The notes below the pieces were generated by a model. It did no database searches and was not told the DNA's origin. It saw nothing but the letters and a program-made list of their open reading frames with translations. From contig OX419759.1 of NCBI GenBank assembly GCA_948567375.1, forward strand, positions 60,230,593 to 60,294,592: a stretch of DNA of 64,000 nucleotides, written 5' to 3'. Each line of letters opens with the position of its first letter. Positions within the stretch are counted from its first letter, which is position 1. The position numbers and the translations under genes are program-made. Positions 1-63,853 of this stretch are shown here, piece after piece. This DNA is from Lunularia cruciata. Its lineage: Eukaryota > Streptophyta > Marchantiopsida > Lunulariales > Lunulariaceae.

Positions 1-956
1 GTTTCACTACCTCCCTCTTTCCCTCTATTGGCTCCCTCATAACCCCTTCCTCCATGGTAAGTGGAATTTGGGCAATTCCTTTGGATATGGCCTCTTCCCC
101 CACAACCAAAACAATTTCTATCATTGAAATTGTTGGCTGGTTGGCCTCCTCTATATGGATGGTTTCCATAACTCCTAGGCCCTCTCCCTACATTCTGATC
201 CACCTCTCTCTTCTCCCATAATTGCACCACATTGATCTTGAGATCCGCAAGTTGTTCTGTGATGGTTTGGAGTGGATCTTTTGGTGGAGGTGCAAGAACT
301 GGAGCAACTACTACTTGTGGTGCAACCCTTGTCACCAAAGTATCAGAAGTTCCACCATACTTGTAGCCTTGAGGAGGATGCACAACCTCCTTCACCACCA
401 AATCACTTTCATCCCCTTCCAAACTCTCCTCCATACGAATTGCGATCTTGATAGCTTCAACCTTGGAAGAAGGTTTCTCATATCTCACCTTGCTTCTAAT
501 TTGTGGTCTCAATCCTCCCACAAAATTCTTGGTGAGCATGGCCCCTATGCCAATCATTGTAGTCTCCACATCATCCCCACCCTTCCTCAACACTATGCGA
601 AATCTGGACTCCAATTTTTCCACTCTTTCCACATAGACTCTCACTTTCTCTCCATCTCCTTGCTTGAGAAATGTAACCTCACTCATCAATCTCTCATAAC
701 TCTCATCAGGAAGAAAGTTCTCAATGAGTGCTGAAGTCAAAGTCTCCCAAGACTCCTCTTCCCCCTCTCTCCTCTCTCTCTTTTGGTATTCTGACTCATA
801 CCATGTAAGTGCTGCATCCTCAAAGAAATCTGGTAATAATGAGGCCCACTCATTCTTCCTCCTCTCATTGTTTCCTATGCAAGCTCTCTTGAAGTCTCTC
901 ACAAAGGCCTCCACATCTTCTCCATCCTTGCCAAAGAAAACCGGAAGTTTCCCCAT
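1..956 (-). CDS. gag: Gag polyprotein of Ty3/gypsy element (partial, open to window edge)
   Basis: The minus-strand frame from the ATG at 956 to the left edge is open for 318 codons. It starts MGKLPVFFGKDGEDVEAFV. Near residues 47-55 is a retrotransposon-gag motif (AALTWYESE), followed by SWETLTSALIENF and a basic, coiled central part. A CCHC zinc knuckle, CFGCGGRGHIQRNC, lies at about 135-94, followed by a Gly/Arg-rich tail. Gag forms the virus-like particle and the knuckle binds element RNA. I checked the frame codon by codon and found no stop. The downstream end, or fusion to pol, is not visible. Family assignment is secure; the exact start is probable because the next ATG is well inside the conserved domain. 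Confidence 0.8.
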   Translation of the reverse strand, partial: MGKLPVFFGKDGEDVEAFVRDFKRACIGNNERRKNEWASLLPDFFEDAALTWYESEYQKRERREGEEESWETLTSALIENFLPDESYERLMSEVTFLKQGDGEKVRVYVERVEKLESRFRIVLRKGGDDVETTMIGIGAMLTKNFVGGLRPQIRSKVRYEKPSSKVEAIKIAIRMEESLEGDESDLVVKEVVHPPQGYKYGGTSDTLVTRVAPQVVVAPVLAPPPKDPLQTITEQLADLKINVVQLWEKREVDQNVGRGPRSYGNHPYRGGQPANNFNDRNCFGCGGRGHIQRNCPNSTYHGGRGYEGANRGKEGGSE

Positions 957-3205: not shown

Positions 3206-4482
3206 TGCACAAATGGGTGTTACAGGACATGGACGAGATTTATGGGGCCTCCAAAGGCCCTAGGCGTTACTCTGGTACAGTGGGTACCATTGAGTTGGAT
3301 GACTTCATCCAAGAGTTTGATAGTTGGTGTGATCTGCAGCAGATGCGGAACCCGACTTTGTTCACACCCTTCATGGCATGGAAGGGGTTGTTTCAGCACT
3401 AGGAGGGTCCACCGATGGACGACTACCATGAGTTCAGGAGAGCTCATTTGGAGGAGATTGAGTTATGGAGACAGTATTGGTCTCCACACTATGTCTCCAT
3501 CACTTCAGGCTCGGTTGCTAGGAGTAGATCGGCTGTACCTACGACTTCTAGCTCGAGTAGTGTGGGTGGAGCTAGTGGAGGTACACTAGCTGGAGATAGT
3601 GCTACTACGAGTGGAGGTACCGCTGTAAGAGGTGGTGTGGTACCGGGGTTTAACCCCATGGTTGAGTTCTTCCTATGTTTGAGGCAGAACTACCAGGGAG
3701 TGCGGACTGACAAGCTGAGGAGCTTGCAGGAGTTCCAGCGGAAGGCTGGAGAGAGCCTACGCGAGGCATATACTCACATGAGGCGGCTGATCAGTTTCAC
3801 TTAGGGAGTTACTGAGGCCCAGGCAGTCTAGTTTTGGTATGGGATACTGGACAGGGAGTTGCGACGTAGAGTTCGTGATGCTACGTTGTTGCAGGCTACT
3901 TTGCCCACTTTGGCAGTAGTCTTTGGTTTGGCTGAGCGTATTGAGCTCAACATGGTGGAGGAGAGAGTGGTGACAGCTGGATTTGGTAGAGAGACCTCAT
4001 CCACGGTTTTGACTTCTTCTAGAGTGCAGCAGAGTGCACCACGCCCAGTTGGTTTTCGAGGACAGGGTGGACAGCCCAGATCCTATGGAGCGAGTGGAGG
4101 GCCTAGTGGAGTTAGACCCTTACCCTCATTTTTGGGTCAGCAGCAGCCAGTGAGTGGTGGTGTTGCTTGTTGGATTTGTGGTGGACCTCACCATAGGAGA
4201 GAGTGTACTCAGGGCAGCGGACCTGATACCTCTGGTGCATCACAGCCAACACAGAGGCAGTGTGAGCATTGCCACAGATTTGGTCACACTAGTGATCCGT
4301 GTTTTGACCTACACCCGGAGTTACGGAGTGGTAGGGCTGCTATGGCAGGTAGTAGAGGAGCTCCAATTCATGGAGGACGAGGTGGTAGAGGTGGTGGTAG
4401 AGGATCTACACCTAGTAGGGGTGCGGTACCTGCCCTTACTTTTGACACAGCTATGGCTACTCGGATTGAGCAGTTGGAGTAG
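3205..4482 (+). pseudogene. gag: Gag of the methyltransferase-bearing gypsy element, 5'-truncated with in-frame TAG stops
   Basis: One reading frame carries gag, interrupted by TAG at 3400-3402, 3802-3804, 3829-3831 and 4480-4482. The capsid-type region shows LRSLQEFQRKAGESLREAYT followed by the FWYG and LDRELRRRVRDATL segments. Two zinc knuckles follow: CWICGGPHHRREC (about 4171-4209) and CEHCHRFGHTSDPC (about 4261-4302). A Gly/Arg-rich (RGG-like) stretch lies at 4369-4425. The product would package element RNA. Every stop sits where Gln would fit the context, so each can be a CAG-to-TAG change. The true N-terminus lies beyond the boundary with the left element. Confidence 0.8.
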
Positions 4483-4485
4483 AGA

Positions 4486-5930
4486 TTGGCTAGTATGGCT
4501 ATTGCTCAGAGGAGATCAGATTTGGGTGCTGAGGCTTCCACCTCATATGCTGGTGATAGAGATGCTTTGGACTTCATGTGCGAAGCAGCACAGGTGGATG
4601 CATCTGCAGCAGTGACTAGGAGTGCAGTACATGCTCCAGAGCCTAGAGGAGCATCAGTGGAGTTGGACCCACAGAGAGGAGAGGTTGGGAGACAGGTCAG
4701 ACTTCCCCAGTCTTTCACGCTATCTGAGGCATTGCAGACGACATCCATGGTTCCTAGACGTCCCAGTGCAGGTGTGGTAGGTGGTGATGGAGTACCTGAT
4801 GGAGTACCTACTAGTCAGCCACCTGCTACTACACAGACTGAGTCTAGCATGATGTTGGGGGCGGCTCAGCTGATTATGCGGCATCCTTTATTTTCAGCCA
4901 GTGACATGTTTACATTGGGAGTTGATCCAGCCCCAGTGTTCCGGTTGGCTGCCACGTTGTGTGAGAGTAGGGATGGTGCAGTTCCTACTACTAGAGCAGA
5001 GGTGGTTGGTAGTGGATCTGACTTGATTGAGGAGCATGGGATCCGTTCAGCGACCAATGGGTTGTGGCAGGCAGTAGCGGCTAGACTGGAGGAGTTGCCA
5101 GCTAGACCGGCCTTTGAGAGAGCGTGGTTTATACCTGGTGTTGTCCTATTGGATAACCAGAGGGGGATTTTTCGTTTGGTGGGACCTTCAGGGAAGGTCT
5201 ATACACCACAGAGAGTCTTGTTAGACTCTGGTGCGCAGCCCCTTATGTTGGGGAAGGCTGCAGTTGTCGGTCTGGAGTTACGGAAGACCGATGTGGAGAG
5301 GTGTACATTTCAGATCCAAACATCTCTTGGTGGTGGTTCGACACAGTACATCACACGTGGAGAGCTTGTTGTCCAGGTTCAGCCTGGTCATCCAACTGAT
5401 AGCTCGGTGGTGAGAGCTCAGGCTATTGCGACGATAGTTGAGTCATATGATGTGCTAGTTGGGGGAGCAATGTTATACCCTATGGGTTTCAACATTGACT
5501 ATTGGGAGGAGACAGCCTCTTATAGACCTGGTTGGCAGTCTGGTGAGGGACGGGTATGTCGCCTACCAGTACGCTTCAGTAGTGGCAGTCTTGGCTCACT
5601 ACAGTCTGGGACCATGGCAGCATCAGTTTTAGCTTTCAGCGGTGCAGTTACTTGGCCTGGTGACTTGTTGGAGGGGAACGCCCATGCAGAGGATACTCCA
5701 TTACCAGAGGAGATCACTCGGCTATGGAGTACGAGTGGGATTGTTCCATCCACCTTGGATGTTCCATTGTGGAGTTCAAAGGAGGCATTGCAGCAGCATG
5801 CAGATCAGTTGGTGCAGCAGGCTTGGAGTGGAGCCTTCGTACCATCAGGGGATGAGTATGAGGATGAGCCTCCAGAGGCGATTGCTTTGACACCTCTGGA
5901 TACCACACTCATTGCTTGGCAGTACCCAAT
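4486..5930 (+). pseudogene. pro: Retropepsin (aspartic protease) region of the polyprotein
   Basis: This frame is open from 4486 to 6258 and continues directly into the methyltransferase. The protease active-site motif is at 5224-5235 (LLDSGAQPLMLGKAAVVG context, DSGA). A downstream hydrophobic flap and strand region includes YDVLVGGAMLYPMGF (about 5446-5490). It would cleave the Gag-Pol precursor in the particle. The 4486-5100 part is Ser/Thr/Gly-rich linker with no recognised domain. It is called a pseudogene only because the whole polyprotein is interrupted; this segment itself has no stop. Confidence 0.75.
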
Positions 5931-6906
5931 AGAGGGGATATGCCTATTGGAGTTGTTTGGTGGGATCAGCACCGGACTAGCTGCGGTGTTACAGGCGGGT
6001 ATCCGAGTACAGAGGTACTTGTATGTAGAGAGAGATGAGACTGCTAGGCGAGTCTCTCTACATCATATGGCACACTTGGCCTATCGGTATCCGGAGTTAT
6101 TATCGATGTCAGCAGTTAGAGGTTACCAGAAGGCCTTACCAGAAGACATTTCCTTACTGGCGGCGCATGACCTAGAGAGACATGGGCCTGTTCACTTGGT
6201 GATTTCTGGATGGCCATGTCAGGGACATACACGTGTGGGCCGCGGTTTGGGTCTTTAGGATCCTTGTTCTGGTGTGTTTTGGGAGATGTTACGGATATTA
6301 TGACATCTCCAGGTTCATCAGTCTGTTTCTCCAGCTTACCTTTTGGAGAACGTTCCTTTGTTAGGTGATTCTCGCACTAGAGTGGTGGCGAGTACACATC
6401 AGGTCCATTCTTGGATGGGACCTACTGTATTGTTAGATGCAGCCAGAGTGGGATCACGGGCTCATCGTCTTCGTCTTTGGTGGACGAACCTTTTACCCAG
6501 AGAGGTTCTACAGCGTAGTTATGATGGGATTCAGCAACTAGACCACATTCTTGTTGATGATATCTTGGATGTTGGGCGTCAGTCTCAGACAGTGGTAGTG
6601 GCTGATAGGTCACCTATGGCAGTGGTGAACCTAGTTGGACAGCCTAGAGCTGCATTTCCTGCACTCATGAGTTTCCCAAGCTCTCATGCTTTTCGAGAGG
6701 GAGGACCTGGACTTGTTTGGGACTCACAGTTACAGCAGTTGGTGGAGCCCAATGCTGATGAGAGAGAGCGGGCGATGGGTTTTTGCACCGGTATTACCGC
6801 TATTCCAGCAGTGTCAGAGGCATCCAAGCGTCAGGTGTTAGGTCAGGCTATGGACCTGAACTGTTTGACCTGGATTGTGAGCCTTGGTTTGGCAGAGCAG
6901 CGTAGG
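5930..6906 (+). pseudogene. DNA (cytosine-5) methyltransferase domain inside the retrotransposon polyprotein
   Basis: The predicted activity is transfer of methyl from S-adenosylmethionine to cytosine C5. Motif I is LLELFGGISTGL (5944-5979). The following acidic strand RYLYVERDETARR fits motif II. Motif IV is SGWPCQGH, with the catalytic Cys codon at 6217-6219. Motif VI is ENV, with Glu at 6346-6348. A motif VIII-like segment is SRAHRLRLWWTNLLP (about 6451-6495). The C-terminal end has ERAMGF and SKRQVLGQAMDLNCLTW (about 6766-6870), like motifs IX-X. The order and the last motifs resemble DNMT3/DRM-type enzymes, while PCQ resembles DNMT1 and bacterial enzymes. A TAG at 6256-6258 and a TGA at 6301-6303 fall between motifs IV and VI, so this copy is broken. 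Catalytic residues are otherwise kept. Confidence 0.85.
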
Positions 6907-7221
6907 ATGCGCTTGATAGGCATCACCACTCGAACACTTGTGAGCCCTGTGCCTATCGAGACAATTCAGGCACATGCTGGGGGCGATGGACCGAGTGGAC
7001 ATGGTATTCTTGGGACACATCCAATAGCTACTAGGGAGAGTGGTCTACTTGGAGTCCATCCAGGTGAGCGTGGGCTACTTGGATTACACCCTTGGTCCAC
7101 ATGGGATGCAGCCAGAGGACGTGTGGAGCTTGCAGCCAGAGTGGAGGGAGTTTTTCACACAGAGGTTGGGACCTCTAGTGGTCGGGAGCATGACACTATT
7201 GCTCCCAAGGGCCCAGTGTAG
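6904..7221 (+). pseudogene. Linker between methyltransferase and reverse transcriptase
   Basis: The frame stays open to a TAG at 7219-7221, then continues in the same frame into RT. The segment has a short repeated pattern (GLLGVHPGERGLLGLHP and HGILGTHP, about 6999-7091) that looks like two to three copies of a G-(I/L)-LG-x-HP motif. No known domain was recognised. It may be a flexible spacer or protease-cleavage region. Confidence 0.5.
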
Positions 7222-8840
7222 CAGCCAGTCAGTACGTCTTCCACTCCTACTACAGTTACAAAGGATACTTGGGAGCCAGATCTTGGACCCAAGCTTACTG
7301 GAGAGGAAAGACGGAGGGTTTGGAGGTTCTTGAGGAGTCACACGAGTTGTTTTGCCTTCAGTATGAAGGATTTGGGTGCTCTGAAGGGACTTGGTATATG
7401 GATTGAGCTGACTAGCAACACACCAGTTTTCCGACGTCCTTATCGATATAGTGATATGGAGAGGACATTGATTCAGAGCCGGAGTAGTGACCTTTTTGAG
7501 GCTGGTTTGGTGGAGATTTCACATGGAGAGTATGCATCAGCGACAGTGATGCCAGCCAAGAAGGATATGCATGGCAACTATACAGATAGGCGGATGTGTG
7601 GAGATTACCGTCCTATCAACCGACAGACCAGGGCTGATCGGTATGCCATGCCTACACCGGAGGAGATTTTTGATGTGATTGGGCATGCAAAGGTCTTCAG
7701 TACTTTGGATCTTCGAGCGGGATATCATCAGTTGCCGATCAGGGAGGAGGATAAGTCCAAGACAGCATTTTGGGCTATTGATCTCACGGCAAGGATGTGT
7801 TATATCAGTGGAGGTTCTTACCATTTAGGTTGAAGAATGCTCCCGCTGAGTTCCAGAGGGTCATGGATAGGATCCTAGCTGGATTGGATTTTGCTCGGTG
7901 CTATATTGATGACATTTTGGTTTATAGCACTACTGTGGAGGAGCATGAGAGACAGTTGTTGGAGGTGTTTGAGAGGTTGAGATCTCATGGACTCAAATTA
8001 CATCCTGGGAAGTGTAGGTTCTTCCATGAGCAGGTTGAGTATTTGGGTCACACTATCTACCCCGGAGGACTTGGTGTCCAGCAGACCAAGGTGGAGGCTA
8101 TTGCACGTATTCCTCGGCCTACGGATGTGAGCAGAGTGCGAGCATTCCTTGGGTTGGCGAACTTCTATCGCCGCTATGTTAGAGGATTTAGTGCCATTGC
8201 CAAGGCCTTGACAAAGCTGACCAAGCTTACACAGGAGTGGTGTTGGGGAGATGAGCAGGAGAGAGCTTTTGTAGAGCTCAAGGAGAGGTTGACATCTGCT
8301 CCTATTTTGAGGAGACCGATCAGGGGACGACCATTTCAGGTTCACACTGATTGGAGTATGTTGGGGCTTGGAGCGGTGCTCACCCAACATGATGATGAGG
8401 AGAAGGAGTTTGTGGTGGCCTATGCTAGTCGCTCCAACAATTCAGCGGAGGCGAAGTATAGTTCATATGAGAGAGAGTGCTTGGCAGCAGTTTGGGCAGT
8501 AGCACATTTCCGATGTTACCTATTTGGTAACCCCTTCACTCTCATCACCGATCATCAGCCGCTGAAGTGGTTGATGGAGTCCGACAAGCTTTCAGGGAAG
8601 CTTGCACGATGGGCTCTGATTTTACAGGAGTATGATTTCACGGTTGTTCATAGACCTAGAGTGGTGAATCGTGATACAGATGGATTGAGTAGAAACCCAT
8701 GTCCCAGCCAGCAGGATCAGACCGGAGCACGTTGGCATGGTGAGACAGATGAGGAGATGGTGCCAGGTTGGCATGCATCGGCCTTTCTGTGTATATTTGC
8801 AAAGACTTTGGTGGTATCTCTCTCAGCGCATACAGGATGA
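7222..8840 (+). pseudogene. pol: Reverse transcriptase and RNase H of the methyltransferase gypsy element
   Basis: RT starts with the typical approach FRRPYRYSDME and the finger motifs KDMHGNYTDRRMCGDYRPIN and FSTLDLRAGYHQLP. The frame breaks near 7785: the first half is in frame 1 and the second half, from about 7788 (GKDVLYQWRFLPFRLKNAP), is in frame 3. One missing base explains this. The catalytic YIDD box is at 7902-7913 with DILVYS following. RNase H runs from HTDWSMLGLGAVL (about 8341) through YERE and TDHQPLKWL to DTDGLSRNP, keeping the acidic residues. A TGA at 8838-8840 is in frame with the integrase frame that follows. RLKNAPAEF has Arg where most gypsy RTs have Gly. Confidence 0.85.
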
Positions 8841-10140
8841 GTTATTGAGGTCACAGATCCAGAGAGTGAAGATATTGGTACAGTTCAGCAAGACATTCAT
8901 GATGATGTCTTAGTGATGGACTATCTTTGCACTGGTGTTGTGGGTGGCACAGTTGGGGCCAAGGAGAGAGACCGTGTTCTTCAGCGAGCCAGACGGTTTA
9001 GATTGGAGGGTAGACACCTTTTGCGTGTATGGGAGGATGGTAGAGTGCGAGTAGTACCACTTCCATCACAGAGACCACAGTTGGTCCGTCATGCTCATGA
9101 GGAGCTAGGACATTTTGGAGTAAAGCGTACATATAGCTTACTCCAGAGTCATTATTGGTGGCGCGGTATGCAGACCGAGGTACAGCAGTTTGTGGCCAGA
9201 TGTGTGGTTTGTGATCGAGTTAGAGCATCATTCAATGCTCCTACGCCACAGTTACACCCATTACCTATCATGGGATTGGGTTACCGTTGGAGTTTGGACT
9301 TTGCCAGACCTTTACCGCTGACTGTGAGACATCATCGATATGTTTTGGTGATAGTGGAGCACTTCTCCAAGTGGATTGAGTTGGTGGCACTTCCTGACAA
9401 GTCTAGTGAAGGGACAGCTTACTCGTTCCTGGATCGAGTTCTTAGTCATTTTGGTGCACCAGCTGAGGTTTTGACTGATCAGGGTACAGAGTTCTTGGGA
9501 GAGTTTCAGGTCTTGTGTGACAAGGCTTTGATTGATCATCGTACTACATCCCGAGATCACCCTGAGGCAGATGGCTTAGCAGAGAGAGTGGTTCAGACGG
9601 TGAAGAGAGGATTGCGAAAGTATGGTTTGCAGAGAGGCCACTTGGGAGATTGGGATCTCCAGTTACCTTGGTTGGCCATGGGCTATCGGTTCAGCCGGCA
9701 AGCCTCCTTAGCATCCTTCTCTCCATACTTTCTACTCTATGGACAAGATCCAGATTTACCTGCAGCCATTCGTCGAGATGCTACTGTAGTTTTGGACTTG
9801 GATGACCCCGATGTATGGATAAGCGAATGTTCTCAGTGGGCAGAGATTTTTCAAAGAGTGATGCCGATGGCCTTTGAGAACTTGGCGATTGCTCAGCATA
9901 GAGATACTTTACGCTATGCTACCATTCGAGGAGGAGGTTATAGACCCTTGATCCGTCGATTTCATCCAGGCGACTATGTATATCTACAGCAGACAGCACC
10001 GACGACACTTGATGTTTCTACAGGCCGCACTATCTTGAGAGTGCACGAGGTTTTGCCATCTGGAGTCCTTGTGTTAGAAGGACGTGATGGTGTTGTTTGG
10101 AAGGATCATGTGCGCAATTGTGCACCATGTCACCTTCCAA
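8841..10140 (+). CDS. int: Integrase of the methyltransferase gypsy element
   Basis: Open in one frame to the natural TGA at 10332-10334 and in frame with RNase H. The HHCC zinc-binding end is HAHEELGHFG...CVVC (about 9090-9215). The catalytic core has Asp in SLDFA (9297-9299), Asp in TDQGTEF (9477-9479) and Glu in ADGLAERV (9582-9584), a spacing of about 35 residues between the last two, as in DDE integrases. After the core comes FHPGDYVYLQQ, a GPY/F-like C-terminal fold. It would insert element DNA into the genome. It has no internal stop from the first ATG at 8913, and all catalytic residues are present. Confidence 0.85.
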
Positions 10141-10190
10141 ACATTGATGGTACTATGGACCCAAGCTTGGCACTTGTACGTGCAGGCTTG

Positions 10191-10334
10191 AGGTGTATGT
10201 TATGTGGCTCTTCTGGTGGAGCTGCTACTATGTTAGTGTGTGATAGCTGTTCAAGAGGATGGCATATGGCATGTATGACTCCTCCCCTCACAGTGGTTCC
10301 TCAGGGACAGTGGTTATGTCCTAGATGTACTTGA
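10191..10334 (+). CDS. PHD finger at the C-terminus of the integrase
   Basis: The last 47 residues hold a full Cys4-His-Cys3 zinc signature: CMLC (10194-10205), CDSC, WHMAC with the His and Cys, and WLCPRC, ending RCT-stop. The conserved Trp before the last Cys pair is present. PHD fingers typically read histone H3 tails (K4 unmodified or methylated). In this place it is analogous to the integrase chromodomain of chromoviruses, which steers insertion. Its role here is inferred; the motif itself is clear. It is in frame with integrase, so it is part of the polyprotein and not a neighbouring gene. Confidence 0.8.
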   Translation, partial: RCMLCGSSGGAATMLVCDSCSRGWHMACMTPPLTVVPQGQWLCPRCT

Positions 10335-10353
10335 CCTATAGCTAGTTCATTCG

Positions 10354-10447
10354 TTATATGGTATAGATTGCAGACAGGCGACTAACGATGGGGCTCCATA
10401 GCACCCGGCCTCCTGATCTTTACCCATTAGAGGGTATACCATATACT
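10354..10447. repeat. Inverted repeat in the 3' untranslated part of the methyltransferase element
   Basis: ATATGGTATA (about 10355-10364) and TATACCATAT (about 10435-10444) form a perfect 10-bp inverted repeat around 70 nt apart. It sits between the polyprotein stop and the LTR. It may be structural RNA or chance in AT-rich sequence. Confidence 0.35.
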
Positions 10448-10503
10448 TAGAGTAGATGGCTATCTGGAGTTAGAGGGACCTAACCGCCAGCTAGGGAGGC
10501 AAT

Positions 10504-11050
10504 TGTGGCACTTTAGAGTCTATGTATGACTTATGTGTGAGTTGTGCTTTTATAGTGTATGATGTTGACAGCGATGTATGTTGTGTAGCGATGTATATAC
10601 GCACGACAGCTATCACGCCATTTGTAGTTCCGCATCTAGATGCTCGGACACTAGAGTTCCAGTGATGGTAGTTAGAGTTATTCTAGCAGTTTCTCAAGGA
10701 CTACTTTCTGACGGTTAGATTTTGTGTTTGGGGTACTGACTTCACGGTGGGGCCCACCGTCACTTTGCACCGTTTGCACCGTTGAGTGTGCCATCAGCGG
10801 GACCGTTAGGGTTTCAGGGCTAGCTCGAGTCCAGGAGGTATAGTTTTGAAGTGAGCTCCAGAGAGCTCACTTCTCTGATGTTGAGCCTTCGAGTTCCTGG
10901 CTATGGTGGACAGAGGCCCGCGAGCATCACCTGGATTCTCTATGCTTGAGTGGGTGTGGCTTGACTGTAATCAATGCCCAGTTGTTGGCAGTTTATAGAG
11001 TGACAGATCAAGTACTGATCTGAGTTGAGTTGAGTTGAGAATGTTAAGCA
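10504..11050 (+). repeat. 3' LTR of the methyltransferase element (probable)
   Basis: It begins TGTGGCACTTTAGAGTC after a purine-rich AGGGAGGCAAT (possible polypurine tract) and ends near GTTAAGCA at 11050. A nearly identical 105-bp block begins again at 11061, so position 10504 marks a true repeat boundary. The 5' partner is not in the window, so the 3' end is tentative. The block contains a strong hairpin at 10849-10872. Confidence 0.6.
10849..10872. repeat. Perfect 10-bp hairpin with 4-nt loop in the LTR
   Basis: AAGTGAGCTC-CAGA-GAGCTCACTT. A stem this perfect with a tetraloop could be a structured RNA element of the LTR (dimerisation, end formation) or a protein-binding palindrome. Its position is inside the presumed R/U5 portion. 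Confidence 0.6.
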
Positions 11051-11060
11051 ATCTGATTAT

Positions 11061-11165
11061 TGTGGCACTTTAGAGTCTATGTATGACTTATGTGTGAGTT
11101 GTGCTTTTATAGTGTATGATGTTGACAGCGATGTATGTTGTGTAGCGATGTATATATGCACAACA
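11061..11165 (+). repeat. Second, truncated copy of the methyltransferase-element LTR
   Basis: The sequence from TGTGGCACTTTAGAG to GATGTATATATGCAC matches 10504-10608 almost base for base (offset 557 nt). It stops where homology to the gag region of the second gypsy family starts (about 11165-11172). It may be a fragment of another copy, or the trace of unequal recombination or a tandem LTR. Confidence 0.75.
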
Positions 11166-11478
11166 TCTTGGCCAACATGGATCGTTCCCAAGCATCATAC
11201 CATGTGAGGGCTTTATTGGTCAAGTACCCACATGCAAACATGCTTGCAGCATGCTCCGTGATCTTTGTTGAGAACAATCGGAAATATCGATTCATTCTCG
11301 AGATCCAATTTTCCACTACTCCCATCATACGCTGCCCCTTGTAAGGCTCAATGTTGCAGGTCTTCTTCATCCGGAGTAGCAATGTGGCTTCATCATTGAT
11401 AGGGTTTGTAAGCACAGGTGCTTCTCCAAGTACTTCAATCATAGGTACTGGGTTTTGAGACGGCTCTTCTTCTTGCAT
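11165..11478 (-). pseudogene. gag: Gag fragment, second gypsy family
   Basis: It reads EEEPSQNPVPMIEVLGEAPV, then RMKKTCNIEPYKGQRMMGVVENWISRMNRYF and YLTNKALTWYDAWER, a gag capsid region (AALxWY-type motif as ALTWYDAWE). The same start is seen at 51187-50944 in the full-length copy (EGEPSQNPIPMAEVLGES). It is truncated at the junction near 11165. Upstream on the same strand an open stretch (11838-11635) with NPLPFNTQVEIHYVVKPK belongs to the element's leader. Confidence 0.75.
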
Positions 11479-35312: not shown

Positions 35313-38300
35313 TCAAGCCCGCCATGCGTCGTCTTTCGCCATCTCAAGGTCACGCAACCTTTTACTACATTGATACCCAATGTAGGTACCAAGAAGCACC
35401 ATTGAAAGAGATAGAGGATAGAACCCATCTAAGACTGTGATACATTGCCCTCCAGCATCTGTGCATGGGTTGGCAGAACCCTTCTTGCTAGGGCAACTTA
35501 TGGACAATCCACCAGCTTCAGTTCCAGCTCCAACACAGTTTTGAACAGTCAACCAATCCAAGAGAATGAAAACAAAAAACCTTGGCCAAGCTGATCCCAG
35601 GTTTGCAATTGTGTTCAACAGAGTCAGATACGTGCCTCCCATAGATGAGTCACTAATTCGAGCAAAGAAGGTTCCCTGATGTAGAAATTCCATACAGTAA
35701 TCAGAGTCACGACAAACACTAGAAATATACACCCTTAACATCAGATCGATATAATCCACTTACAGGAGCTCGGATAACGCAAATGAATCTCCACTAAAAG
35801 AGAAGCTGTCACATAAAATATGAAGTGAAAAAACAACCCGAGCAGGAACGAGGTGAACAGTTTCACCTTAACCATTCCAACAAAATCTTCAGACCTGGAA
35901 ATGAACAAGGTAAAGTTACGCACCTGAGAAACGAACATAATTGTCGAAGCAAAGGAGGTGAGAACTCCTGATAAAATAATCATGAGGTAAAAGAATGGCG
36001 CGGAGCTCACGGTGGCACCTACTGGAAACAGAGCTACTAGGCAAGTAGAAACAGCTGCCATTCCCAAGCGCATGTAATATCCCATCAGCCAAGGTGAAAA
36101 AGGCCGTCCTCTGCTTGCCCACCTTCCCGCAAAGACAGCAAAAAGAAGCTCCAATGGGAACTCAATTAGAATTACTAGCGACACCATTTCCTGTAAGAAA
36201 CAACTTGATGACACAAAGAATAAATGAGCTTCAACTTCGACAAAGACACTTGAGAAGAAACAAAACCTCTGGAATATTGTGATCATATTTGACAATCCCC
36301 TCGTAGTCAGAACCAAAAGATAAATGATGCGCCCAGTTTGCTCGTGACAAAAGAAACACTCCGTGGAATATTCACAATAATGTGAATTGAGCATAGCAAA
36401 CCCAGTGCTTTAGATAGCCATTCAAATCCCCAAAAGATGAGTCCAGAGGGAATCTAGCAACATCCAAGCAAAAATACGGGGTACTTCCACACATTTATTG
36501 CTAACACTCTACTTCAGAAGGATACGTATGACCTACTCGTGTGACGCCTTTCTCCATAAGCTTGAACACTCCGACAGTCTCTGCTGTTACACTTCCCAGC
36601 TGTAGGCAAAAGTTGAGATGAAACTTATCACCTTAGTTCCTATAATTTGAAAGTAGAGATGCCTTGGTTATGTCCTACATACTCCAGCAAATTGTCTTAC
36701 ATGTAGAAAGTAGGTTCATAACTATGCATCGGATGATAACTTCCAAATACAAAACAAGCTTACCCAATCAGCTTCCAAAGGGTGCTAATACTCCAAAGGT
36801 CAACAGAACAATCAACAAAATGTGAGGGGGTAACATTTATTTCAAACTCTAGCTTGATCGATCCGATCAGGATATATAGATAGTTCTGCTTCACGACGGG
36901 GTTCCGCTTGAACCTTATCTTCTAGTGTCTAGACATCTAGTGTGATGACCATTATCGTACCTTGCAGATGAGAAGTATAGTCGTGAGAGAACGGATATCT
37001 GTGATTAAGATTAAGAATCGGCAAGGTTCGTTTGTGTTTGCCACACCCATAAACGAATGCGATTTGCAACATAAATACATATATAATCACTTACATGAAG
37101 CAATATATATCCTGCAAGAAAGAAAAGGTCTAAAAGATGCTCTGCGAAATTGCTACGGCATCCCAAGAATTGAACCAAGATGAAAGCTCCACAGACATAA
37201 CAAGCAATTTCTGCAGATTAATTACATGATCAATAAAACTTCTCCAAGTGGTTTGAAGAGAGATAAAATGTGGCTCTGTCCTATTTTGATCTTGAGAAAA
37301 TCATGATACAGAACGCAGTTGATGATAAATCAGATTGCAAAATTGAGTATCAAAGACTCCAAACTAACTCAACAACGCCAAAGGATACTTGGTAAGGTAA
37401 CAACCGCCCAAAGCCTTCGGTACATCCGTTTCACGCCCATCTGTTGGATGGTTCCAGCCACTTTATCATCTAAGCTTCCATGTCCGAAACTCAACTTGAA
37501 GCCTTCTTTTCTTCTTTCAGTCATACCCGATTTCTTCTCTTCAAACCCTGATGACCGCTTCCCATAATCTTCAAAAATCCCTTGCCCGTGGAAATTTACG
37601 TCATCAAGTCCATCATTTGGTTTGTAGAGGTCGTCATACCGTGGTGGTTCCAGGTTCACGAGTTGCGTATCAGACCCGTTGCGAGAGTCAGTGATATGTG
37701 TGTTATGATAAGGTTTTTCGGACTTGTATAACAGTAACACTGTTGTCACGACATAGAACCATCCCCAGAAGTAGAAGTAATTTGAGAGGGACAGAAGTCC
37801 TGATTCAGTCAGCACATCAAGTCAGTGTCTCATACCATCAGTAATCTTTTGCAAATCCTCTTGAGATGAAGGAGAACTCAACCAACCAAAAGCGGAATTC
37901 ACACCTTTTGAGCTAGGCGCTTTTCGGAGATAATTGTTGCAAAAGCCCACGTCATTCAAAGCCAAAAATATGGTGAATGACATGAAGTAGCCACTGTTTA
38001 TTCCTATAGTCTGCAGATGAACCAAAGGGTATAGATAAGTTCGCTTTCAATTCCAGTAAATACACTCCTAAGGTTGGAAGGTCAGGACGAATGACAGGTA
38101 AAGAGCACATATATAGTTCTGTTCAGATTTATCTCGCGCAAGTGAATTTGAGCAAATTTGGTTCTCCTTGCTCTTAGATGTAAGATAATCAATGCAACTG
38201 TCTGCTCTACGTTTATTACCAAAAGGACTAGTGATTGATTAACTGAACTAGGATTATACGATCTGTACTTCGATATATTCCTTTGATATGCAATTATAGT

Positions 38301-61390: not shown

Positions 61391-63853
61391 ATGTCTCTCG
61401 CATTATCTTTGGTACGAGCAGTGTCGTTGTCATCGAAGTTGATTGATAGTAACAAGTTCAATTCTTCGTCTCCTACTTCTGCTCCCTGTGGTGTCGCGTT
61501 CTCTGGTGTGAGAGGAGGACGAAACAGAGTTCTGGGGTCATGGACAGGTTTTCTTCAAAGTCCACGAAACTGTCCACGACGGTCCGTAGTGCTGCCTGCC
61601 AATGCTGCGAGGATCACGCTGTCGTCACTCCGGTCTTGTCCTCTGGAAGAGTATGGTGCAAGCTTTGGGAGTGGGGAAGGAGGTAGCAGATGTTGGAGGC
61701 TCTGGGGGCAGAGGACGAAGGAGAAGAGCTTAGGAAAGGGGAAGAGGAGGAATGTTGTGGCAGTCAAGTCGAGCTTGTCTGACACAGCGCAGCTAATAAT
61801 GGACGGGATCAAGTGGGGCTGGAATCTCGACCCGCCAACATGGAACGCTGCTTTTATCTCGATCGGCACAATTTTCGTCGTCGCTGCTCCGGTCCTGTGG
61901 GTTGGTCTCACGTTGCCGGGGATGTTGAGCGCTTATATCCTGGGGTCTCTGATTTGGCGAGCATATGGCGGGCAAGGACTTCTGACGATTTGCCTCTTTT
62001 ACATCATGGTATGTTCCTCTAACCCTGCTTGAGATTTCATATTATTGAAGCTTTCTTGTGGGTTCGGTTGGTGATGCGGGTAATGGTTGGATCCTGTAAT
62101 TTATGAGTTATTTTTCCGGATCAGGCCATTGGATCGTTGCAATACAAATTACAAGAGAGTGACCTCCTCTCTGCGCGTTCTAGTTAGCTCACTGTTCCTA
62201 CGAATTGGATGTTAAGATTGATGTTCATCTTGTTCCAATTCTCCCCTGTTTGTCCTGGCGAATTCAGTGAAATATCTCGTTAGTGAATTTAAATATGTAT
62301 TTTTTTCAGTTGGAATATTTGTACCCCTAATAGTTGTGAGGATGCTGCTGGGAACAACCGCAGTGTGGACGATTGAGGCTGCCGTAAAATGGGAGATGGA
62401 ATAAAATGCTGAGAACCCAGTCATGGATGACTTTTGTGATAGATCACTAAAATGCATCTCGGACGTCGTGATATGAAGACCGTTTCGGCGTATGATAGTC
62501 TAAAATTTCCATCGATTCTTTGGGGTTATCTGCTGTCGAGGATAGAAGCGACTTCGATGACTTCCTCTCGTTCTAACGCATATCTCGCAGATAAAAAGCT
62601 TGCTCAGGGTCAAAACGGAAATTGCAGGATCGAATGGGTGGCGTGGAAAATCCACTCCGATGAATTTCTTTGACTAGTTGGTCCCATGTGAAAGCCCAAA
62701 ATATTTTTGGGACCTATACTTGAGGAACGTTTGATGGACATAACTGTTGAGGGTTTGATTAGTTTGAGTTACATGCGGTGGTTTGGTCTTCCAACGTATC
62801 AAGCAGATAGAACTTGCATCCCTGGAATTCTGAACAAGTAGAACTGGCCAATGGGGTCTAGTATCTCGATGGTGATGAGATGCTCGGTTGTATAGAGAAA
62901 GTTGAATTGATTGTGGGTGTTGATTGAGTGCAGGCAACGGCTGCAACGAAGCTGAAACTGAAAGAGAAACAAAAAGAGGGAATCGCTGAGCAAAGGAGTG
63001 GAAGGAGAGGCCCTGGTAGTGTGTGGGGTTCTGGTACTGCAGGTGCTTTGTGCGCTCTGCTTACAATTTTCGGTGTGGGCGGTCCAGAAATTGCTCCTCT
63101 GTGGCATTTAGGATATTTAGCTAGTTTGTGCACGAAATTGAGTGATACCATCTCCAGCGAAATTGGAAAAGCGTTTGGCAAAACCACGTAAGATCATCCA
63201 CTTCATTTTGCGAGTCCTTTTCATTGTTCTTGCTACCAAGATTCAGATATGCATTTGCACACACGTATTTTTCATTGTATGCTCGCTTGGACGCCCGTCT
63301 CCTGTTCTACGAGCTTCTATGAGATGGATCTCGAAGTCCGTCTGAGGTCTTCCATAAGATGTAAGGTTTCTGTATGGAAGTTCAGATCCAGCGATTCAAA
63401 GATACAGAACACAACGTCTACCTTAGGTTATATTGCACGTTTATACTTCTCACTGAGAAGAGAGCTGAATAGATTAACAATAACAATAACAATTTACCAT
63501 CATTTATTTGCAGGTACTTGGTAACTTCCTTCTCCATCGTACCTCGTGGAACAGAGGGTGCAGTCAGTGTGGAAGGCACTCTAGCTGGTCTTTTTGCTGC
63601 TGTATTCCTGGCCGCGACTTCATACACCCTAAATCAGGTCTGTGACGACCAGGGGACATTGCCTAAAATTTCTAACCTTGATTATGAAATATATTTCATG
63701 TGAGAACTCAGGTTTACCTCTAGCTGATGAAATCATTTTCTTCTGCAGATTGATGCTACCGGTGCAGTCGTTGCTGTTTTGGCTTCACAGGTTGCGAACC
63801 TGCTTGAAAGCTACCTGGGAGCTACTCTACAAGGCAGAGCTGGCTTTGAATGG
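61391..63853 (+). CDS. VTE6: Phytyl-phosphate kinase VTE6 (DUF92/TMEM19 family), exons 1-4, incomplete
   Basis: VTE6 phosphorylates phytyl phosphate to phytyl diphosphate in the chloroplast envelope, supplying tocopherol and phylloquinone synthesis from recycled chlorophyll phytol. Exons: 61391-62008, 62934-63187, 63514-63637 and 63749-63853, all GT-AG with matching phases (367 codons so far); the last exon or exons lie beyond the right edge. Residues 1 to about 130 are Ser/Arg-rich and fit a plastid transit peptide. From about residue 135 come WGWNLDPPTWNAAF and hydrophobic segments. Family signatures: GRRGPGSVWGSGTAGALCAL, CTKLSDTISSEIGKAFGKTT (spans the exon 2/3 join), VPRGTEGAVSVEGTLAG, ASQVANLLESYLGATLQGR. 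The start is the first ATG of the frame. No defect seen. Confidence 0.9.

What the first reader, a model, noticed from the sequence alone, without database searches (positions are those of the whole stretch)
5930..6906. A DNA cytosine methyltransferase built into a Ty3/gypsy polyprotein
Sequence: motif I (LLELFGGISTGL), motif IV (PCQ), motif VI (ENV), a VIII-like RLRLWW and IX/X-like SKRQVLGQAMD lie in order, in the same frame as the protease before and the RT after. Established: C5-methyltransferase domains captured by retrotransposons were reported in dinoflagellates and charophytes (de Mendoza et al., 2018, from memory). Inference: this element belongs to that class or is an independent capture. 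The domain could methylate the element's own DNA copies, hiding them or taming them in the host.
Basis: partly seen in the sequence, partly recalled or inferred. Interest (0 to 1): 0.92.

Follow-up and report, generated by a model that had tools for sequence, protein, structure and literature searches.

The report
Retrotransposon carrying its own DNA methyltransferase
The sequence is a dead copy of a very abundant plant jumping element whose family keeps a DNA-methylating enzyme and a chromatin-binding finger, so the element may mark its own DNA and choose where it lands.

Summary

One claim is corrected. The MTase frame continues from the protease, but a UAG followed by CAR-YYA separates it from RT in 38 of 38 readable copies; TAG-CAG-YYA accounts for 1,571 of the 1,671 places. 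Gag-Pro-MTase is ORF1. The ends are split repeats, as described for Klebsormidium KnitGypsy-Dnmt3.

Relatives occur in Calypogeia, Marchantia, Sphagnum, Closterium and metagenomes. A second order, RT-RNase H-MTase-integrase-PHD, forms its own clade.

The kind has been known since 2018; this is a new variant. Catalysis, read-through and targeting are inferred.

The parts
3225..11168 (+). 5'-truncated, dead copy of the element
   Evidence: Homology to other copies runs from 3225-3227 to about 11168 at 97% identity in 4 of the 5 copies compared; in the fifth it stops at 10616, that copy lacking A2-B2. A full copy is inferred to be about 9.9 kb.
3225..4482 (+). Gag region (ORF1), with two zinc-knuckle-like motifs at 4168-4206 and 4261-4302
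   Evidence: Resembles the N-terminal part of Marchantia proteins P0031 and P0041 (by eye); CCHC motifs read from the sequence. No Pfam gag hit in the window piece or in L031; weak Retrotrans_gag in P0031 (E 0.018).
5101..5640 (+). Aspartic-protease-like region, LLDSGA at 5218-5235
   Evidence: Motif read from the sequence; pN/pS 0.35 among copies. No Pfam hit in this element.
5929..6906 (+). DNMT3-type cytosine-5 methyltransferase domain, stops at 6256 and 6301 in this copy
6907..7218 (+). weakly constrained C-terminal tail of ORF1
   Evidence: pN/pS 0.84.
7219..7227 (+). UAG stop of ORF1 followed by CAGCCA (CAR-YYA, a read-through type context)
   Evidence: TAG in 38 of 38 readable copies, followed by CAGCCA 34, CAGCTA 2, CAGTCA 2; 1,571 of 1,671 genome places.
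7222..8633 (+). ORF2: reverse transcriptase and RNase H (frameshift near 7790 in this copy)
   Evidence: PF00078, PF17917, PF17919; one 1,037-aa frame in an open copy.
9063..9563 (+). ORF2: integrase zinc-binding domain and DDE core
   Evidence: PF17921 E 3.6e-19, PF00665 E 7.1e-13.
10194..10334 (+). ORF2: C-terminal PHD finger and stop
   Evidence: PF00628 E 8.3e-11; all eight C4HC3 residues invariant in 15 of 15 aligned; a stop at 10332 in 19 of 19 copies.
10502..10611 (+). terminal repeat B1
   Evidence: 97% identical to 11059-11168; two B copies in 18 of 20 long copies.
10612..11058 (+). A2; its first 25 nt recur at the 5' end (A1) of other copies
11059..11168 (+). terminal repeat B2 and 3' end of the element

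Best explanation
A high-copy gypsy-type retrotransposon of an unnamed plant (probably a bryophyte) makes Gag, protease and a DNMT3-type methyltransferase from ORF1, ending at a UAG. A minority of ribosomes read through UAG-CAR-YYA and add RT, RNase H, integrase and a PHD finger. The MTase is therefore made in Gag amounts and would be present in the particle and pre-integration complex, where it methylates the new cDNA de novo (most likely at CG). The PHD finger on the integrase docks the complex on unmodified histone H3 tails. New copies then arrive already marked, in quiet chromatin, and host maintenance enzymes keep CG and CHG marks. Shown here: gene order, conserved UAG context, purifying selection on the MTase, DNMT3 fold with invariant catalytic residues, the PHD finger, split repeats, and a CG/CHG deamination imprint on integrated copies. 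Inferred: enzyme activity, read-through, packaging, histone binding, and that the element's own enzyme places any of the marks.
For: UAG conserved with a CAR-YYA context and ORF2 in the same frame; the 46 codons between the UAG and the first Met of ORF2 have 0 stops and 0 frame-shifting deletions in 38 copies. MTase pN/pS 0.36 (0.41 for codons 110-326, bootstrap 0.29-0.65) against 0.78 (0.55-1.05) for the gag-pro spacer and 0.84 (0.49-1.42) for the tail. Cys97, Glu140-Asn141 and Arg182 invariant in 26 aligned sequences. Fold as DNMT3A/B. ORF1-type protein ends shortly after motif X also in Calypogeia, Marchantia and Sphagnum proteins. Pairwise C/T mismatches per site CG 0.0351, CHG 0.0267, CHH 0.0038. 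SymbioDIRS-Dnmt3 domains methylate CG de novo in yeast (PMC5890265, read).
Against: No activity data. In the same paper the KnitGypsy-Dnmt3 domain gave no methylation in yeast (called inconclusive there). CG is no more depleted in the element (o/e 0.45) than in the flanks (0.51, 0.48). The CG/CHG imprint is what host MET1/CMT enzymes would leave anyway, and no MTase-free control family was examined. No stable RNA structure after the UAG (z 0.20). P0084 and P0137 (metagenomes) have MTase and RT in one frame without a stop, and some Marchantia gene models join them (P0015, P0057, P0065). Within this genome the PHD shows no sign of purifying selection (0.88 on 53 codons, 15 singleton variants, 19 copies).
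Confidence: 0.5

Rival explanations
1. The MTase works on the element's RNA or mainly binds nucleic acid in the particle, and DNA methylation is not its job.
For: It is made with Gag, the RNA-packaging protein. De Mendoza et al. raised RNA methylation for the LINE type (PMC5890265, read).
Against: The relative is DNMT3A/B by sequence, fold and tree, and the catalytic residues are invariant.
Confidence: 0.15
2. The MTase methylates cDNA or host DNA to escape a host defence that senses unmethylated foreign DNA, or to disturb host silencing; it is counter-defence, not self-taming.
For: Purifying selection on the MTase in a spreading family; long persistence across the green lineage.
Against: No defence of that kind is known to me in bryophytes, and the copies are themselves heavily marked by deamination.
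Confidence: 0.25
3. The UAG is a plain terminator and ORF2 is translated by re-initiation or its own AUG; no read-through occurs.
For: Metagenome relatives P0079-P0082 have ORF2-like proteins beginning with Met. No structure after the UAG.
Against: Same frame with no gap, an open 46-codon stretch before the first Met, and CAR-YYA kept in 38 of 38 copies.
Confidence: 0.25
4. The MTase is a passenger without use to the element.
For: Most copies are broken, as here.
Against: Selection comparable to the protease (0.36 against 0.35) and wide conservation.
Confidence: 0.05

Closest known systems
KnitGypsy-Dnmt3 of Klebsormidium nitens (de Mendoza et al. 2018, PMC5890265, parts 1-4 of 7 read)
   Same: DNMT3-type domain, unrearranged, in a gypsy-type element; purifying selection; repeats in the A-coding-B-A-B order of DIRS elements
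   Different: There the domain is said to lie in the Pol ORF; here it lies before a conserved UAG, at the end of Gag-Pro. The word PHD does not occur in that paper's main text. No K. nitens sequence was obtained, so kinship is untested.
SymbioDIRS-Dnmt3 and SymbioLINE-Dnmt of Symbiodinium (same paper)
   Same: Retrotransposons with cytosine methyltransferases; hundreds of copies; DIRS-like repeats in the former
   Different: Other element classes (tyrosine recombinase or LINE), other host lineage, no DDE integrase with PHD
REM1 of Chlamydomonas (gypsy; paper not held; split repeats recalled, not seen)
   Same: Green-lineage gypsy element, recalled to have A1-B1A2B2 type terminal repeats
   Different: Described in PMC2774666 (passages) as a chromovirus with a truncated, reverse-frame integrase and a chromodomain; no methyltransferase recalled
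SIRE1-type plant retroelements with UAG-CAR-YYA read-through (recalled, no call)
   Same: Same stop context between two ORFs
   Different: Copia elements; there the stop lies between Pol and an Env-like ORF

Membership tests
DNMT-bearing gypsy element (KnitGypsy-Dnmt3) | DNMT3-type domain in gypsy coding region, motifs unrearranged | tested here: met
DNMT-bearing gypsy element (KnitGypsy-Dnmt3) | domain lies in the Pol ORF with RT | tested here: not met
   UAG between MTase and RT in 38 of 38 readable copies
DNMT-bearing gypsy element (KnitGypsy-Dnmt3) | DIRS-like repeats A-coding-B-A-B | tested here: met
   B1-A2-B2 at the 3' end. A1 start found with A2 in 2 of 25 MTase places compared, and 6 same-strand pairs 9.32-9.60 kb apart among the 100 listed of 563 places. 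Only 25 nt of A1 seen.
DNMT-bearing gypsy element (KnitGypsy-Dnmt3) | DNMT under purifying selection | tested here: met
   with the picking bias stated in the report
DNMT-bearing gypsy element (KnitGypsy-Dnmt3) | sequence clade with the K. nitens elements | not tested
   No K. nitens protein among the hits; its sequence was not obtained
Ty3/gypsy | order RT, RNase H, integrase (DDE) | tested here: met
Ty3/gypsy | a pair of long terminal repeats | tested here: inconclusive
   No end-to-end direct repeat in 20 ten-kb stretches, but most do not reach the 5' end; split repeats instead
Ty3/gypsy | RT placed in a tree with reference gypsy elements | not tested
   The RT tree holds only relatives of this element
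Chromovirus branch of gypsy | chromodomain after the integrase | tested here: not met
   PHD finger in that place; no chromodomain at E <= 0.01 in ORF2
DNMT3 | fold and sequence nearest DNMT3 among C5-methyltransferases | tested here: met
DNMT3 | tree against DNMT1, CMT, DRM, DNMT2 and host DNMT3 genes | not tested
   The genome search for PF00145 did not complete
DNMT3 | catalytic activity | not testable with these tools
   -
Stop-codon read-through (UAG-CAR-YYA) | conserved UAG and context, same frame after it | tested here: met
   (motif name recalled)
Stop-codon read-through (UAG-CAR-YYA) | read-through product | not testable with these tools
   -

The most novel reading that the evidence does not exclude
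An old green-lineage branch of gypsy elements carries a matched writer and reader: a DNMT3 enzyme made in Gag quantity, which methylates cDNA before integration, and a PHD finger on the integrase, which lands it in H3K4-unmethylated chromatin. The element silences itself on arrival, and this strategy has lasted since before the split of green algae and land plants, surviving a move of the MTase from before RT to between RNase H and integrase (or the reverse).
Probability: 0.25. Interest if true: 0.85.

Novelty: new variant of a known kind. Interest (0 to 1): 0.62.

Why it matters
Transposons are normally the target of DNA methylation. A family with well over a thousand copies in one land-plant genome that keeps its own de novo methyltransferase under selection makes the open question of what such an enzyme does for the element testable. 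The split into a Gag-level writer and a Pol-level reader gives a concrete, falsifiable model, and relatives in Marchantia, a laboratory plant, offer a host. If the element's enzyme acts on host DNA too, plant methylomes in this branch would have a parasite-encoded input.

Tried and rejected
Rejected: chance motif match; bacterial or phage origin (limited references); dead cargo; a DRM-like rearranged enzyme (motifs run I to X); chromodomain integrase. Led nowhere: extra CG depletion of the element; RNA structure after the UAG; common tRNA primer sites (recalled motifs) in the first 1.4 kb of the 20 loci, which in most copies begin downstream of the element's true start; Rfam scan of the window, 0 hits; K. 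nitens sequence (4 hits, none named). An early reading of L046 as showing A1 was dropped: the 134-nt stretch is an internal copy of the B1-A2 junction. The viral-contig scan gave 19 distant hits, used only as an outgroup (18 of 19). Not done: target-site duplications and the full A1, because the 5' ends could not be fetched; a tree with host DNMTs, because the tool did not complete; naming the host.

Full report
What was checked. The window lies in a 566-Mb, 74-contig genome of an unnamed host. The named relatives with the highest MTase identities are Calypogeia fissa (73%), Marchantia polymorpha (67% for P0007, and up to 74% for short stretches) and Sphagnum (60% for P0016, 80% over a third of the query for P0056). 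The host is probably a bryophyte, perhaps a liverwort; this is inference, and no marker gene was tested.

The UAG. I mapped 40 copies (20 ten-kb loci, 19 three-kb loci and the window) on window coordinates. At 7219 the codon is TAG in 38 of 38 copies with sequence there (2 lack the stretch), followed by CAGCCA (34), CAGCTA (2) or CAGTCA (2). The next most frequent in-frame stop in ORF1 is found in 5 of 39. Genome-wide, a pattern with the stop codon and the two YY positions left free has 1,671 exact places; with TAG and YY fixed it has 1,571 (94%); reversed-pattern controls gave 0. The letters of 23 places were shown, and 23 of 23 read TAG-CAG-YYA. ORF2 follows in the same frame. The 46 codons before its first Met have no stop and no frame-shifting deletion in 38 copies, although their variants are mostly amino-acid changing (19 against 7), as in the ORF1 tail (48 against 14) and unlike the start of the MTase (5 against 10). 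The RNA after the UAG is not unusually stable (z 0.20). CAR-YYA as a read-through context is recalled knowledge.

The same split elsewhere. Predicted proteins from Calypogeia (P0002), Sphagnum jensenii (P0056), Marchantia (P0070) and metagenomes (P0006, P0008) all end 94 residues after motif X. I saw proteins, not their DNA, so the stop codon itself was not seen. Against a universal split, P0084 and P0137 have MTase and RT in one frame, and Marchantia gene models P0015, P0057 and P0065 join MTase and RT pieces.

The PHD finger. ORF2 ends in a PHD finger (PF00628, E 8.3e-11 in the window). The eight zinc ligands are invariant in 15 of 15 aligned sequences; the 14 relatives were chosen by me from hits of a query that contained the PHD, so this shows conservation of the finger where present and not its frequency. 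Among solved structures it resembles PHD fingers of CHD4, KMT2C/D, KDM5, PHF21A and ATXR5. The tryptophan that H3K4me3 readers use in their aromatic cage appears to be missing, which would favour unmodified H3; this rests on recall. Within this genome the PHD shows pN/pS 0.88 on 53 codons, so no selection can be claimed there.

Ends. Eighteen of 20 long copies have two copies of B, 1.9% diverged on average, and most copies share the 3' end just after B2. The 25 nt after B1 (start of A2) occur 563 times in the genome. Among the first 100 places, 6 same-strand pairs lie 9.32-9.60 kb apart, with one further same-strand pair at 3.2 kb and two opposite-strand neighbours at 10.6 and 14.8 kb. Of 25 MTase places on C1 that I compared, 2 have the motif on both sides, at about -4.69 and +4.68 kb, 13 only downstream, 2 only upstream and 8 neither (exact matches only). 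This is the A-coding-B-A-B order that PMC5890265 gives for KnitGypsy-Dnmt3. Only 25 nt of A1 were seen and no target-site duplication could be tested.

Selection. pN/pS over all pairs: gag 0.37, protease 0.35, MTase 0.36, RT first part 0.55, RT/RNase H 0.26, integrase 0.52; gag-pro spacer 0.78 and MTase tail 0.84. Bootstraps: MTase codons 110-326 0.41 (0.29-0.65), spacer 0.78 (0.55-1.05), tail 0.84 (0.49-1.42); the intervals overlap somewhat. Copies were picked by similarity to MTase residues 1-109, so that part (0.25) is biased and the rest is the fairer test. The CG/CHG mutation bias was not modelled.

Methylation traces. Between 20 long copies C/T mismatches per site are 0.0351 at CG, 0.0267 at CHG and 0.0038 at CHH; C/A plus C/G are 0.0022, 0.0024 and 0.0015. 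The integrated copies have thus been methylated in CG and CHG contexts. Host enzymes would do this anyway, and no MTase-free family was examined. CG is not more depleted in the element than beside it.

Relatives and architecture. The MTase search gave 76 proteins among 7,994 scored, the integrase-PHD search 74 among 542, and the P0084 search 4 among 7,991. Of 102 proteins with an MTase hit, 31 are protease-MTase and 36 MTase alone; 10 have the complete order RT-RNase H-MTase-integrase-PHD and 17 more show part of it (3 RNase H-MTase-integrase-PHD, 11 MTase-integrase-PHD, 2 RNase H-MTase, 1 MTase-integrase), the Volvox reticuliferus fragment P0096 among them; 2 have MTase-RT-RNase H-integrase-PHD in one frame; the other 6 are mixed or joined models. 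In the MTase tree the second order forms one clade (95/92; 23 labelled rows and 3 of unknown order), and this element groups with Calypogeia, Marchantia and Sphagnum (100/99) (which warns of long branches). The RT tree agrees: 7 second-order rows plus P0126, in which no MTase was found, on one side (100/99), and this element next to Marchantia (100/98). MTase and RT therefore appear to have travelled together since the two orders separated. Whether there was one capture and a later move, or two captures, is open.

Literature. All ten searches of the held open-licence library were used. Their listings showed no report of such elements in bryophytes, of a PHD finger on them, or of an ORF1 position; most subscription papers are not held. 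PMC5890265 was read in parts 1-4 of 7 and searched for terms. PMC12344493 (2025) was seen in passages; it repeats that DNMT3 members occur in retrotransposons of streptophytes and dinoflagellates. PMC6453930 and PMC2774666 were seen in passages.

Verdict. A real, abundant, selected DNMT3-bearing gypsy-like family. The kind is known; the ORF1 position with a conserved UAG, the PHD-bearing integrase, the land-plant abundance and the two architectures across the green lineage make it a new variant. It fails one feature given for KnitGypsy-Dnmt3 (MTase in the Pol ORF), so it is not filed under that name.

Noticed in passing
window 3-956 and 1198-1695, - strand: Remains of another gypsy-type element on the opposite strand: Retrotrans_gag (E 2.7e-11) and a zinc knuckle, next to the 5' truncation of the described copy.
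   Followed up: no
window 35741-36394, - strand: Open frame with a piece of an acetyl-CoA transporter (PF13000 Acatn, E 3.9e-9); probably an exon of a host gene.
   Followed up: no
window 61391-62032, + strand: 213-aa frame with a plastid-transit-like start and hydrophobic segments; no Pfam hit.
   Followed up: no
L046 538-671 (turned to element strand): A 134-nt piece spanning the B1-A2 junction sits inside the 5' region of this copy, as a template switch during reverse transcription might leave.
   Followed up: partly
L032, L043, L048 (3' flanks): Three of 20 long copies abut other copies of the same family, two in opposite orientation; possible clustering in repeat-rich chromatin.
   Followed up: no
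L044 near 8617: This copy ends after B1 and lacks A2-B2, as recombination between B repeats or a different end choice would give.
   Followed up: no
P0024: A protein of this family is filed as a DNA methyltransferase of Candidatus Obscuribacterales; likely eukaryotic contamination of a metagenome bin.
   Followed up: no
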